Source: Nitrospira sp. | GTDB lineage: Bacteria > Nitrospirota > Nitrospiria > Nitrospirales > Nitrospiraceae | Direction: 5' to 3' | Assembly: GCA_030653545.1 (NCBI GenBank) | Contig: JAURZE010000028.1 | Span: 88,607-152,606 of the forward strand | DNA: 64,000 nucleotides | In this document: positions 20,131 to 25,089 of the stretch, one piece after another | Layout of the letters: every line of letters starts with the position of its first letter | How positions within the stretch are numbered: the first letter of the stretch is position 1 | The notes under the pieces: generated by a model | Database searches by the model: none | What the model saw: only the letters and a program-made list of their open reading frames with translations | Told to the model about the DNA's origin: nothing | Program-made: the position numbers and the translations under genes

Positions 20131-21027
20131 TTATTCTTCCGTAAAATAATCTGAGTCGATCCGTTTTATTTCGAAAGTCGCAGTCGTAGTTGTTCCCAAT
20201 CCTTGATCAATCATCAATTCCGCAAGCATCCGTCCATCGATCAAAATGACTTTGGGATCTATAGTTTCAACATATCGCTTGGCGTCATCTGAAAACTTGC
20301 TAGTCGTTATAAATACACCCTTCTTTGCCCGCTTGCCGTGAAGTGCTCCGACAAACCTCTGTACTTCTGGCCTTCCAACCGAACCTTCCCAACGCTTGGC
20401 TTGAAGGTACACCAAGTCAAGCCCAAGTCGGTCTTCCTTAATGATTCCGTCAATGCCTTCATCTCCGCTACCACCGATAGACCTCCCGGCATCGGCACGA
20501 GATCCCCCATAGCCCATTGCAACCATCAGATCGACGACAAGCCTCTCAAAGAACTGTGGTGAGTTACTCGCAATTCTCTGGACGATCTGACTGGCTAGGT
20601 CACTCCGAATACTTTCGTAGGACTTTTGGAGCGTTTCTTCTGGTGTCTCACTAGTTGGCTCTACCTCTTCTTCCTTTGCCGCCCTGGGTTTATGAAATTC
20701 AACAAACTCCGGGTACTGGTTGAGAATCCTTATGTCTATTCTTTTATGCCCTACCTTATGAAGATCCAGTCCACGCTGAGTCACTTTGAAATACCCTCGG
20801 CGAGATGAATCGAGAACCTTGGCCTGCACAAAATAGCTCTTTGCCCAGGCGACACGATTATCGAACTTCCTTTGAGTTCCGCTTGGAAGTAACTCGTTCA
20901 GGTCTTCCTCTGAAAGAGCCATAATTTTAGCAATATACTCGCGAGCCTCCTGAATCGAGTGCTCCTTCCCATCCGCAGCAAGATCCAGCATTGGTCTGAA
21001 AAAGCTCTGGAAATCTGGTACAGGCAT
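20131..21027 (-). CDS. mrr: Mrr-type restriction endonuclease
   Basis: 298 residues. The N-terminal half is the winged-helix Mrr_N domain (PDFQSFFRPMLDLAADGKEHS... and the LLPSGTQRKFDNRVAWAKSYFVQAKVL block). The C-terminal half is the PD-(D/E)xK nuclease: GGSGDEGIDGIIKED, LVYLQAKRWEGSVGRPEVQRFVGAL and GVFITTSKFSDDAKRY, with catalytic Asp and QAK. Mrr is a type IV enzyme that cuts methylated DNA. No methylase or partner is present. Codon use and base composition are visibly AT-richer than in neighbours, which with the flanking repeats and esterase remnant suggests horizontal acquisition. Confidence 0.9.
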   Translation of the reverse strand: MPVPDFQSFFRPMLDLAADGKEHSIQEAREYIAKIMALSEEDLNELLPSGTQRKFDNRVAWAKSYFVQAKVLDSSRRGYFKVTQRGLDLHKVGHKRIDIRILNQYPEFVEFHKPRAAKEEEVEPTSETPEETLQKSYESIRSDLASQIVQRIASNSPQFFERLVVDLMVAMGYGGSRADAGRSIGGSGDEGIDGIIKEDRLGLDLVYLQAKRWEGSVGRPEVQRFVGALHGKRAKKGVFITTSKFSDDAKRYVETIDPKVILIDGRMLAELMIDQGLGTTTTATFEIKRIDSDYFTEE

Positions 21028-21143: not shown

Positions 21144-22181
21144 CTAATCCGGAACCTGCCCTTCCTGGAACAGCTGATTCATGATGGCATTGCGCATTTC
21201 TGGGTCGCGGTAGTGCTTCACGGCTTTGGTGTAGTTTTCCATCGCGCTCTGGCGCTTGCCGCGGATGGCGTAGAGTTCGGCGATGCCGTGGTAGGCCCGG
21301 GGGTCTTCGTCGTTGCACTTCAGAGCGCGGCTGAATAATTCCTGCGCGTCCTGGAACTGCCGCTTTCTGAGCGCGAGCCAGCCGAGCGCCGAATGCGCCG
21401 AACCGAACTCGGGATTGGCTTCCTGCGCGTCACGATAAGACCGTTCGGCCAAATCCAACCGCCCGCGCGTTTCATACAACCCGCCCAACGCGAAGTGCAC
21501 TTCGGCATCTTTCGGATTCAGTTTCAACGCCGTCTTATACGACTGCACGGCCGGTTCCATCTTGCCTTGTTCCGCCAGAGCGCAGGCGAGATTGGCGTGG
21601 GCGATATGATCTTCTGGATTGAGCTTGATGACTTCGCGATATTGCGGGATGGCCATTTCGAGCCGGCCCTGCTCCTGATAGGCCACGCCGAGATTGGTGC
21701 GGGCCGGGGCGTATTCCGGAGCGAGCCGCACGGCTTCGCGATATTCTTTGATCGCCATTTCGAGATGATTCGCCCGCTCATGGATCTGCGCGAGAAAGTA
21801 ATGCGGGTAGGCGGACTCAGGGGTGAGCTTCGCCGCTTCTTTGTAGGACTTCATGGATTGTTCCGACTCGCCGGATTGAGCGAGGAACAGGCCCATGATC
21901 AGATGGGCGTGGGCATTCTCCTGCTGCCGCCCGACGAAGGCTTCCACCCACCGCTTGACCTCGGCAATGTCATCGGCTTCGTGCAGACAGCGCGCATGCG
22001 CCTGCCAGGCCTCGGCAAACTGTCCGCGCACGAGATGCACGGCGTTCATCGCAAAATGCGGGCGGGGATCTTTTTCCACCCCCGTCGGAAGATGGCGGGC
22101 CCAGGCCAGGGCCTCTTGCTCGGCGACGTCCCATTGCCCGGCGAGGAGCGCTGTTTCACATGGTGTTTGATGATCGGGCAT
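21144..22181 (-). CDS. Tetratricopeptide repeat protein
   Basis: 345 residues. From about residue 95 to 330 it consists of roughly seven 34-residue TPR units with the family spacing of Gly8, Ala20 and Pro32, for example YPHYFLAQIHERANHLEMAI, APARTNLGVAYQEQGRLEMA and AHANLACALAEQGKMEPAVQ. The first 90 residues are not repeats and contain several His and Trp. There is no signal peptide, so it is probably a cytoplasmic scaffold. It follows the ThyX-like gene by 13 bases on the same strand, so the two are likely co-transcribed. Confidence 0.85.
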   Translation of the reverse strand: MPDHQTPCETALLAGQWDVAEQEALAWARHLPTGVEKDPRPHFAMNAVHLVRGQFAEAWQAHARCLHEADDIAEVKRWVEAFVGRQQENAHAHLIMGLFLAQSGESEQSMKSYKEAAKLTPESAYPHYFLAQIHERANHLEMAIKEYREAVRLAPEYAPARTNLGVAYQEQGRLEMAIPQYREVIKLNPEDHIAHANLACALAEQGKMEPAVQSYKTALKLNPKDAEVHFALGGLYETRGRLDLAERSYRDAQEANPEFGSAHSALGWLALRKRQFQDAQELFSRALKCNDEDPRAYHGIAELYAIRGKRQSAMENYTKAVKHYRDPEMRNAIMNQLFQEGQVPD

Positions 22182-22194
22182 GGCGTATCGGAAT

Positions 22195-23682
22195 CTATCT
22201 GGTCAAGGTGTCTTCGATATCGGGGGATGTGGCCTGGATACGGTCTCCGAGCATCGGATACCGCGCGGCCAGCTTCTGTTTCATCAGCCAGGCGACGGTG
22301 CGATAGGACCAGTGGCCCTTCACGCCTGAGCGAAGCTTGGCGATGTATTCGGCCTCGGCATAGTCCATCTTGAAGAGGCAGCGGACTTTGAACCCGAAGG
22401 GGATGGCATAGAGCGACCCTTCAGCGCTGGTCTTCTTGAGCTGTTCGATGTCGATGCGGACGGCATCCATGGCCTGCCGGTATTCTGAATCCAGGCCCGC
22501 CTGCACCAACGGCGGCGGCACGTCGTAGCCGTGGATCGTCGTGAAGTTCTGCTGGATCTGCTGGCAGCGCCGGTGCCGGTGCATGTCGCGCCAGCCGCCG
22601 ATGTCCATCAGGATGTCGAAGGTGAAGGCGTAGCCGCTGCGGAATTCCTTGATCAGTTCGTCGTAGGGACCCCGTGCACTCATGCCGACGTCGATGGCAT
22701 CCTGCTTCTGCTTGTCGGTCCAGTCGCGAACGACGGCGAGGATCTTGCGATACGGCGCGTGCGTCGCGCGATAGAGTAATGTCGTGACGATTTCATCGAT
22801 CGGGTCGTGGCCTTCGATCAGCTCGACCGATTCCTGTTCGCCCCAGGTTGACGGTTGATCCAGGCCCGTTCCCTTGAGGGCCCCTTTCGCGTACCGGCCC
22901 AGCTCCTGATACACCGAGGATTGATAGTCGTTCGGCTTGGCATGGCGCGCGAGAGTCGGAGCCATCGGCTCGGTCATGCCCGCCGCCTGGCCGCTCAACT
23001 CGCCCCACACGTTCATGGGGGCGCGCTGGCAGGCATCCTTGAGGTCGTCGGCAATGAGGCGCAGCTCCGGCAATTGCGAAGAGAGCAGGCGCGTGATCTG
23101 CTTTTCCAACGTCCTGATGCTCACGACCTGCCCGACGTTGGTCTTCGCCGCCAACGGCAGGAGATAGCGCGTGACGTCGAACGCCCGCGCAGCAATCGTG
23201 CGTTGGTAATCGGCCGGCTTCATCGATTCGGGGCGCGGTTCGCGCTCGGTGAGAAACTGGGTCAGCTGTGGATGCAGGAGACGATAGACCTCGGACAGGC
23301 TCCGCAAGATCCCTTCGTAGGTGCCTTCGGTCTCCGTCCCGCGCAGGGAGTCCGGGATATACCAGCTGCCCGAGGCAAAATTTTGATAGCGGCTCGATTT
23401 CGCCTGCCCGTCCCACAACGGTTCGTCTTCGAGGCGGATGGCGGCGAGTTCGGAAATGTTTTCAAAACAGATGATGACGTGGCCGAGGTCGGCGATCGAC
23501 GCATGGCCGTAATCGAAATAAAACTGGTCCCAGAATTTTTCCGACGAGTGGCCGTGGACCCACTTGATGCTGCTCTCGATGGAGTCGGGCGAGCGGCTGT
23601 ACCGCGCCAGGGCATAGGCGGATTTCTCCGGTGGCATGGGCGCCACGGCGATCACGCGCCGGCTGGATTGATCCTGACTCAT
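22195..23682 (-). CDS. Double-length ThyX-like protein (tandem FAD-dependent thymidylate synthase fold)
   Basis: 495 residues, about twice a normal ThyX. The first half contains the ThyX-like YDYGHAS-type segment (YFDYGHASIADLGHVIICFENIS), KSSRYQNFA and ARAFDVTRYLLPLAAKTNVGQVVSIRTLEKQI. The second half again has LLYRATHAPYRKI and the RHR segment DMHRHRRCQQIQQNF, then AEYIAKLRSGVKGHWSYR. The canonical ThyX signature RHRxxSxNxxSxR is not intact in either half: the second keeps RHR but lacks the serines. ThyX makes dTMP using FAD and methylenetetrahydrofolate; whether this protein does so is uncertain. Confidence 0.7.
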   Translation of the reverse strand: MSQDQSSRRVIAVAPMPPEKSAYALARYSRSPDSIESSIKWVHGHSSEKFWDQFYFDYGHASIADLGHVIICFENISELAAIRLEDEPLWDGQAKSSRYQNFASGSWYIPDSLRGTETEGTYEGILRSLSEVYRLLHPQLTQFLTEREPRPESMKPADYQRTIAARAFDVTRYLLPLAAKTNVGQVVSIRTLEKQITRLLSSQLPELRLIADDLKDACQRAPMNVWGELSGQAAGMTEPMAPTLARHAKPNDYQSSVYQELGRYAKGALKGTGLDQPSTWGEQESVELIEGHDPIDEIVTTLLYRATHAPYRKILAVVRDWTDKQKQDAIDVGMSARGPYDELIKEFRSGYAFTFDILMDIGGWRDMHRHRRCQQIQQNFTTIHGYDVPPPLVQAGLDSEYRQAMDAVRIDIEQLKKTSAEGSLYAIPFGFKVRCLFKMDYAEAEYIAKLRSGVKGHWSYRTVAWLMKQKLAARYPMLGDRIQATSPDIEDTLTR

Positions 23683-23826: not shown

Positions 23827-25089
23827 ATGATCAAAGGCATCAAGGGCGTCAAAGATCTGCTTCCGGAAGAGACCCCGCGCTGGCGCCTCATCGAAGAGAA
23901 GGCGCGGTTCTGGGCCTCGACGTTCGGCTTTCACGAAATCCGTGTGCCGATTTTCGAAGTGACAACGCTCTTTGCCCGCAGTATCGGGGCGTCGACGGAC
24001 ATCGTCGAAAAAGAAATGTATACGTTTCAGGACCGGGACGGCACGTCGCTGACCTTGCGCCCCGAGGGAACGGCCGGAACGGTCCGGGCCTACATCGAAC
24101 ATAATCGCGCGGCCGATCCGCTCCCCCAGAAATATTGTTACCTCGGGCCGATGTTCCGCCACGAGCGGCCGCAAGCCGGGCGTTTGCGGCAATTTCATCA
24201 GTTCGGCGTGGAATCCTTCGGCATGGCCGATCCGCGGGCGGATGTTGAAACGATCGCCTTGCTCTGGCAGTTGCTTTCCGATCTGCAACTCCCCGCGCTG
24301 ACCCTGGAAATCAATAATCTCGGGTACACGAGCGACCGGGAGGCCTATCGACCGGTTCTGGTGGCTTATCTCCGCCAACAGGAAAGCCAGCTCTGTGCCA
24401 ATTGCGTCCGGCGCATTGAGACGAATCCCTTGCGCGTGCTGGATTGCAAGGTGCCGGCCTGTCGAACCGCCACAGATGCTGCGCCGACGCTGGCCGGTTC
24501 GATGGCGGAACCGGCCACGACCTATTTTACGAAGGTGCTGGAGGGGCTTCAGGCGATCGGCATTCCCTATCAGTTGAATCATCGACTGGTCAGGGGATTG
24601 GATTATTACTGCCTGACGACGTTTGAAGTCACGACCACCAGTTTAGGAGCTCAGAACGCGGTCGGCGCCGGTGGGCGCTATGATGGTCTGGTTGAGACCT
24701 TGGATGGCCCTAAGACGCCGGCTGTCGGCTTCGCGGTGGGAATTGAGCGTATCTCTATGATGCTGCCGGAAACCGTTACTCCGCCCTCTGTCGGAGATAA
24801 GACGGTCTATGTAGCGGCTTTCGGCGACCGTGCCGCCCTTGAAGGATTGAAGATTCTCCAAGACCTCCGTCTGGCCGGTATTCGAGCGGTGACGGATTTC
24901 CGTTCAGCGACCTTGAAAGCTCACCTCCGCCAGGCGGATCGTTTTACTTGTCGCTATACCCTTATTCTCGGTGATGACGAACTCGATAAAGGTTCAGCCA
25001 TTCTCAGAAATATGGAAACGAAAGATCAACAAGATCTTCCTCTTCCAACGATTGTCGCCGCTCTTTCCGCACGAGTTCTGACCTCCTAA
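23827..25089 (+). CDS. hisS: Histidyl-tRNA synthetase
   Basis: 420 residues, class II synthetase. Motif 1 lies in the N-terminal GIKGVKDLLPEETPRW region; motif 2 is the FRHERPQAGRLRQFHQFGVE block; the two HisA signatures are LVRGLDYYCLTTFEV and GAGGRYDGLVE; motif 3 is AVGFAVGIERI. The C-terminal anticodon domain follows from about residue 330. It charges tRNA-His in the cytoplasm. It is the first plus-strand gene after a run of minus-strand genes, so gene direction switches at about 23.75 kb, close to the origin. Confidence 0.96.
   Translation: MIKGIKGVKDLLPEETPRWRLIEEKARFWASTFGFHEIRVPIFEVTTLFARSIGASTDIVEKEMYTFQDRDGTSLTLRPEGTAGTVRAYIEHNRAADPLPQKYCYLGPMFRHERPQAGRLRQFHQFGVESFGMADPRADVETIALLWQLLSDLQLPALTLEINNLGYTSDREAYRPVLVAYLRQQESQLCANCVRRIETNPLRVLDCKVPACRTATDAAPTLAGSMAEPATTYFTKVLEGLQAIGIPYQLNHRLVRGLDYYCLTTFEVTTTSLGAQNAVGAGGRYDGLVETLDGPKTPAVGFAVGIERISMMLPETVTPPSVGDKTVYVAAFGDRAALEGLKILQDLRLAGIRAVTDFRSATLKAHLRQADRFTCRYTLILGDDELDKGSAILRNMETKDQQDLPLPTIVAALSARVLTS

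What the first reader, a model, noticed from the sequence alone, without database searches (positions are those of the whole stretch)
22195..23682. Double-length ThyX-like protein without the canonical serine motif
The 495-aa protein contains two segments reminiscent of ThyX, but the hallmark RHRxxSxNxxSxR is reduced to RHRRCQQIQQNF in the second and missing in the first. Either it is a divergent thymidylate synthase working as a pseudo-dimer, or a flavin or pyrimidine enzyme with new chemistry. It is followed by a TPR protein gene in the same transcript.
Basis: partly seen in the sequence, partly recalled or inferred. Interest (0 to 1): 0.6.

Follow-up and report, generated by a model that had tools for sequence, protein, structure and literature searches.

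The report
Double ThyX with a split active site
Nitrospira bacteria seem to make the DNA building block dTMP with a fused double enzyme in which each half has lost a different part of the usual active site, so the halves can probably work only together; this is their only visible thymidylate synthase.

Summary
The 495-aa gene is real, on the minus strand, in a Nitrospira genome. Both halves are ThyX-like (Pfam Thy1 E 2e-10 and 2e-11; profile-profile E 5e-18 and 1e-16 against single-domain ThyX). It is in fact divided: the N half keeps the catalytic S-x-R-Y (S96, R98, Y99) and lacks RHR; the C half keeps RHR (369-371) and the dUMP-activating Arg (R451) and lacks S-x-R-Y. The same split holds in all 128 double proteins checked, from Nitrospirota, phages and plasmids of several phyla, down to 20-40% identity. 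All 18 single ThyX in hand carry the motif in one piece. The split matches the subunit roles seen in ThyX crystals. In Nitrospirales, 96 of 98 genomes have Thy1 matches and none has thyA; 0 of 59 have thymidine kinase or DHFR (PF00186). Best reading: an obligately asymmetric, pseudo-dimeric flavin-dependent thymidylate synthase, the only visible dTMP source. Double ThyX was noted for Chloroflexi in 2009 as uncharacterised; I found no published account of the split site. Activity and assembly are inferred, not shown.

The parts
22195..23682 (-). double-length ThyX-like protein, 495 aa (stop at 22195-22197)
23008..23682 (-). N half (residues 1-225), Thy1 fold; predicted to supply S-x-R-Y (subunit C role) and S62/R190 (subunit B role)
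22198..22830 (-). C half (residues 285-495), Thy1-like; predicted FAD-binding RHR and dUMP-activating Arg (subunit A role)
23386..23397 (-). S96-S97-R98-Y99, equivalent to T. maritima S88-x-R90-Y91; invariant
22570..22578 (-). R369-H370-R371, equivalent to T. maritima R78-H79-R80; invariant in Nitrospirales
22330..22332 (-). R451, equivalent to T. maritima R174 (activates dUMP); invariant
23497..23499 (-). S62, equivalent to T. maritima T55 / M. tuberculosis Ser71 (subunit B contact to FAD)
23113..23115 (-). R190, equivalent to T. maritima R165 / M. tuberculosis Arg190; invariant in the 44 Nitrospirales rows, Q/E in some distant doubles
23167..23169 (-). R172, equivalent to T. maritima R147; invariant in the double family
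21144..22181 (-). TPR-repeat protein gene, 13 bases downstream, same strand; conserved linkage
23827..25089 (+). gene taken as hisS (named from its sequence, not scanned), divergent neighbour; conserved linkage, no functional tie implied

Best explanation
The gene encodes a flavin-dependent thymidylate synthase of the ThyX fold, made of two fused ThyX domains that degenerated in complementary ways. Each working site is most likely built from one C half (RHR holding FAD, R451 activating dUMP) plus N halves (S96, R98, Y99 for dUMP and methylene transfer; S62 and R190 for FAD), so that two chains would form a pseudo-tetramer with two live and two dead sites instead of four. It would convert dUMP to dTMP with methylene-tetrahydrofolate and reduced FAD, and be the only de novo thymidylate source in Nitrospirales. 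Shown: both domains, the split and its conservation, the absence of thyA, thymidine kinase and DHFR by Pfam search. Inferred: assembly, which halves meet in a site, and catalysis.
For: (1) Both halves match Thy1 and single-domain ThyX profiles (E 5.5e-18 over 190 columns; 1.1e-16 over 131 columns). A model at pLDDT 85 and pTM 0.85 matches solved ThyX structures over its N half: Z 11.6, 204 residues, rmsd 4.0 on 2af6; all rows with Z above 8 are ThyX or its relative PolB. (2) Split: SxR[YF] in the N half and RH[RN] plus the R174 equivalent in the C half in 128 of 128 doubles; the reverse never at the motif positions; 18 of 18 singles have RHRx7SxR[YF] (first R is K in two) in one piece. (3) Subunit roles: in M. 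tuberculosis ThyX, RHR and R199 (= R174) come from subunit A, S71 and R190 from B, S105, R107 and Y108 from C (PMC6514825); in a viral ThyX, Q75 and R182 from monomer A and S88 from B (PMC3498832). S88, R90, Y91 and R174 are catalytic (PMC8316439). (4) Sole candidate: no thyA, no second Thy1, no dNK in this 99.9% complete genome; thymidine kinase and DHFR 0 of 59 relatives; dTMP kinase and a dUMP source present. (5) A phage double follows a dCMP deaminase gene; a plasmid double lies near a dCTP deaminase gene. (6) In a sister family with the related type I double, three genomes have thyA and no Thy1; in the one examined, DHFR follows thyA directly.
Against: No activity, flavin content or oligomeric state is known. 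The NCBIfam thyX equivalog model scores 19.9 bits against an 87.9-bit cut-off. Q75 is Asp in this branch and the Arg at M. tuberculosis position 87 is Glu. The R165 equivalent is not kept in all doubles, so the subunit B role is the weakest part. The C half was not matched to ThyX structures on its own. The displacement by thyA concerns type I, not this type. Two of 98 Nitrospirales genomes lack any Thy1 match; draft gaps are assumed.
Confidence: 0.8

Rival explanations
1. A ThyX-fold enzyme that methylates or hydroxymethylates another pyrimidine nucleotide (like PolB, a UMP/dUMP methylase of Streptomyces), while dTMP comes from an enzyme not yet recognised.
For: PolB is a ThyX relative with another main substrate (in the structure list); Q75 and the M. 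tuberculosis R87 equivalent are changed in this branch; phages also carry the double.
Against: All dUMP and FAD catalytic residues of ThyX are kept; no other thymidylate synthase or thymidine kinase in 59 relatives; near-universal in the order.
Confidence: 0.08
2. A standard four-site ThyX whose two fused halves are each complete, the missing motifs being an alignment error.
For: Both halves have the Thy1 fold by profile.
Against: RHR never occurs in the N half at the motif position and S-x-R-Y never follows RHR in the C half in 128 sequences (three stray KHN/KHR tripeptides lie elsewhere).
Confidence: 0.04
3. A pseudoenzyme: a regulatory or nucleotide-binding protein without catalysis, in organisms that live on imported thymidine.
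For: Hallmark motif degenerate in each half; the TPR gene is linked. C. glutamicum has an atypical ThyX not required for thymidylate synthesis (title).
Against: Catalytic residues are invariant at 20-40% identity; no thymidine kinase, dNK or other route.
Confidence: 0.05

Closest known systems
Canonical ThyX / FDTS (Pfam PF02511, NCBIfam TIGR02170; T. maritima TM0449, M. tuberculosis ThyX)
   Same: Thy1 fold; R78-H79-R80, S88, R90, Y91, R147 and R174 equivalents present; found in genomes without thyA, DHFR (PF00186) or thymidine kinase
   Different: two fused domains; the motif is split between them, so a homotetramer with four equal sites is impossible; far under the TIGR02170 cut-off
Duplicated ThyX of Chloroflexi, noted as uncharacterised (PMC3224940, 2009); here type I, e.g. 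Thermomicrobium roseum plasmid NC_011961
   Same: double length; same N/C split of catalytic residues in the Nitrospirota type I relatives
   Different: type I keeps more ThyX sequence (Q75 in the C half, N half HSHPFYNSEQVSQRY); this protein is type II, only remotely alike; relatedness half by half suggests one ancestral fusion but is not proven
Thymidylate synthase of Microcystis phage LMM01 (A0A7D4, phrog_36506) and Tunturiibacter phage Tunturi_5 gp50
   Same: full-length type II doubles, 27% and 40% identical, same split
   Different: phage genes; no biochemistry found in the papers searched
Chlamydia trachomatis ThyX (Griffin et al. 2005, cited in PMC8316439)
   Same: studied enzyme; from memory it is also about double length (not verified here; the paper is not held)
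   Different: type and residue split not checked

Membership tests
Thy1 superfamily (Pfam PF02511) | score over Pfam's curated cut-off | tested here: met
   86.7 bits against 24.8; both halves over the cut-off on their own
Canonical ThyX (TIGR02170 equivalog) | score over NCBIfam cut-off | tested here: not met
   19.9 bits against 87.9
Canonical ThyX | RHRx7SxR[YF] motif in one domain | tested here: not met
   RHR only in the C half, SxRY only in the N half; 18 of 18 singles have it whole (first R is K in two)
Canonical ThyX | catalytic residues R78, H79, R80, R174, S88, R90, Y91 all present in the protein | tested here: met
   R369 H370 R371, R451, S96, R98, Y99, invariant
Canonical ThyX | ThyX fold | tested here: met
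   N half Z 11.6 to 2af6; C half by profile only
Canonical ThyX | homotetramer with active sites at three-subunit interfaces, one FAD per site | not testable with these tools
   single chains only can be modelled; no experiment
Canonical ThyX | genome lacks thyA and usually DHFR | tested here: met
Canonical ThyX | thymidylate synthase activity | not testable with these tools
   no biochemistry available
Double-length ThyX with split motif (defined here; types I and II) | two Thy1 halves, SxR[YF] in the N half, RH[RN] and R174 equivalent in the C half | tested here: met
   128 of 128 doubles, this protein among them
ThyA (PF00303) | Thymidylat_synt domain | tested here: not met
   the protein has no PF00303 match; none in the genome

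The most novel reading that the evidence does not exclude
The two degenerate sites of the pseudo-tetramer have acquired a new role (for example binding a nucleotide that regulates the live sites), or the enzyme, with Q75 and the M. tuberculosis Arg87 equivalent replaced, uses a modified methylene-transfer chemistry, giving an asymmetric thymidylate synthase unlike any studied.
Probability: 0.12. Interest if true: 0.8.

Novelty: new variant of a known kind. Interest (0 to 1): 0.6.

Why it matters
Which residues of which ThyX subunit do what has been worked out in homotetramers, where one mutation hits all four subunits at once. Here evolution has done the separation: A-role and C-role residues sit in different halves of one chain, so each can be mutated on its own. 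It names the apparent sole thymidylate synthase of Nitrospira, a major group of nitrite oxidisers and comammox bacteria (from general knowledge), which the thyX equivalog model misses. It also suggests how a double ThyX noted in 2009 and left uncharacterised works, and shows the same design in phages.

Tried and rejected
Sequence search of solved structures with the whole protein gave only chance matches. The first structure model, from 44 Nitrospirales sequences only, was poor (pLDDT 48.8) and was not used. A scan of viral contigs with the Nitrospirales alignment gave no relative; one with a wider alignment gave 30 loci. Foldseek's matches to the whole 495-residue model are weak by TM-score because single ThyX chains cover half of it. 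The tree of halves puts I-N, I-C, II-N and II-C each in one clade but cannot say whether types I and II share one fusion, because long branches meet; profile comparison favours one (I-N/II-N E 4e-16, I-C/II-C E 4e-12, N against C no better than about 1e-5). The Griffin 2005 and Leduc 2004 papers were not held. A chance argument on the split alone is weak (three linked residue groups, about 1 in 4); the weight lies in conservation over great divergence and the match to crystal roles.

Full report
What is there. The gene lies on the minus strand at 22195-23682 and encodes 495 aa. The window belongs to a Nitrospira genome: contig C28 of a 3.94 Mb assembly, 99.9% complete; the closest named relatives are Nitrospira, including N. 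moscoviensis and Ca. N. defluvii. Pfam finds only Thy1 above its cut-off, in two stretches, 86.7 bits against a cut-off of 24.8. In the genome scan the two stretches stand separately at 1.8e-11 and 2.1e-10. NCBIfam's thyX equivalog model sees it far under its cut-off (19.9 against 87.9 bits). Profile comparison of each half of the type II family with single-domain ThyX gives E 5.5e-18 over 190 columns (N half) and 1.1e-16 over 131 columns (C half).

The hallmark is split, not lost. On an alignment anchored by T. maritima ThyX (sequence checked against 1kq4), the N half has S96-S-R98-Y99 at S88-x-R90-Y91, R172 at R147 and S62 at T55, but D-E-P where RHR should be. The C half has R369-H370-R371 at R78-H79-R80 and R451 at R174, but no S, R or Y after it. 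These residues are invariant in 44 Nitrospirales sequences and in 41 sequences including distant viral ones. Relatives from phages (Tunturiibacter, Microcystis, Microcoleus, Vibrio) and plasmids (Miltoncostaea, Euzebya, Paenibacillus, Bacillus, Parabacteroides) at 20-40% identity show the same split; only the last R of RHR becomes N in the Bacillus/Paenibacillus branch, and the Y becomes F in the Microcoleus phage. A second, more ThyX-like type of double protein (type I), found in other Nitrospirota and in Thermomicrobium, shows it too in the 18 Nitrospirota sequences read. Count: 128 of 128 doubles have SxR[YF] in the N half and RH[RN] plus the R174 equivalent in the C half, against 18 of 18 singles with both in one motif.

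Why the split makes sense. ThyX active sites lie between three subunits. A review of the crystal structures assigns RHR and the dUMP-contacting Arg199 (T. maritima R174) of M. tuberculosis ThyX to subunit A, Ser71 and Arg190 (T55 and R165) to subunit B, and Ser105, Arg107 and Tyr108 (S88, R90 and Y91) to subunit C (PMC6514825). In the chlorella-virus enzyme Gln75 and Arg182 come from one monomer and Ser88 from another (PMC3498832). R174 activates dUMP; S88 and Y91 assist the transfer, and mutants of S88, R90 and Y91 are slow (PMC8316439). Here everything of role A is in the C half and S, R and Y of role C are in the N half; S62 and, in Nitrospira, R190 of role B are in the N half too. The simplest assembly is therefore two chains forming a pseudo-tetramer with two complete sites, each from one C half and two N halves, and two dead ones. 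This is inference; single-chain modelling cannot show it. In this branch Q75 is D366 and the M. tuberculosis R87 equivalent is E78, both invariant in Nitrospirales, so contacts to dUMP must differ in detail.

Structure. With Nitrospirales sequences alone the model was poor. With ten viral doubles in the alignment it reached pLDDT 85.2 and pTM 0.85. The N half matches solved ThyX chains at Z 8 to 11.6 (2af6: 204 residues, rmsd 4.0), and all rows above Z 8 are ThyX or PolB. In the viral library the phage LMM01 thymidylate synthase matches over the full length (TM 0.78). The C half did not get its own row, as one domain fills the list, so its fold rests on profile comparison and on a similar order of strands and helices.

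Is it the thymidylate synthase? Of 98 Nitrospirales genomes sampled, 96 have Thy1 matches and none has thyA (counted; two drafts have neither). No thymidine kinase and no DHFR family member is found in 59 relatives, while both searches find known genes in control genomes. This genome has no deoxynucleoside kinase, but has dTMP kinase and a dCTP deaminase-like gene that could supply dUMP. Elsewhere in the class, Thy1 and full-length thyA are mutually exclusive: 12 genomes with Thy1 only, 3 with thyA only; in one of the three, DHFR follows thyA directly, and its genus also has a member with the double and no thyA. That exchange concerns type I. A phage double follows a dCMP deaminase gene and a plasmid double lies near a dCTP deaminase gene. 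So the function is well supported, but indirectly.

Neighbourhood. The TPR gene starts 13 bases downstream and is in place in 77 of 80 Nitrospirales loci; the divergent gene taken as hisS in 73 of 80. Co-transcription is likely; a functional tie of the TPR protein is unknown.

Novelty. [quoted passage not shown] Doubles are annotated as thymidylate synthase in phages and plasmids. I found no account of the complementary split, but subscription literature is not covered, and C. trachomatis ThyX, studied in 2005, may be of this length (memory only). I therefore call it a new variant of a known kind: it works like ThyX, but does not meet the one-domain motif that defines canonical ThyX.

Noticed in passing
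L247:1441-2631 (G000:C33, about 97596-98636): The dCTP deaminase-like protein of the same genome also has two DCD matches in one frame, a second fused pseudo-dimer in the dUMP route; double-length DCD proteins may be a known kind (memory).
   Followed up: partly
Nitrospirota genomes G062, G090, G098, G120, G139 and others: Genomes without Thy1 have ORFs, many of about 240-270 aa, with only a partial PF00303 match (profile positions about 95-220, E mostly 1e-8 to 1e-14): perhaps an archaeal-like thymidylate synthase.
   Followed up: no
L164:4833-6193 (genome G286): thyA and DHFR overlap by four bases in a genome without Thy1, while genus-mate G187 has the double ThyX and no thyA: non-homologous displacement within one genus.
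   Followed up: partly
G170 contigs C9 and C13 (L167, L161): One genome with both a single-domain ThyX and a type I double.
   Followed up: no
G007:C31:110621-112081: A genome placed in the same genus has a double ThyX only 44% identical to this one, against 74-98% in the other same-genus copies: perhaps a transferred copy.
   Followed up: no
window 20131-21027 (-): Mrr-type restriction endonuclease gene downstream of the TPR gene; found near the double ThyX in only 1 of 80 loci (flanks of at most 3 kb).
   Followed up: no
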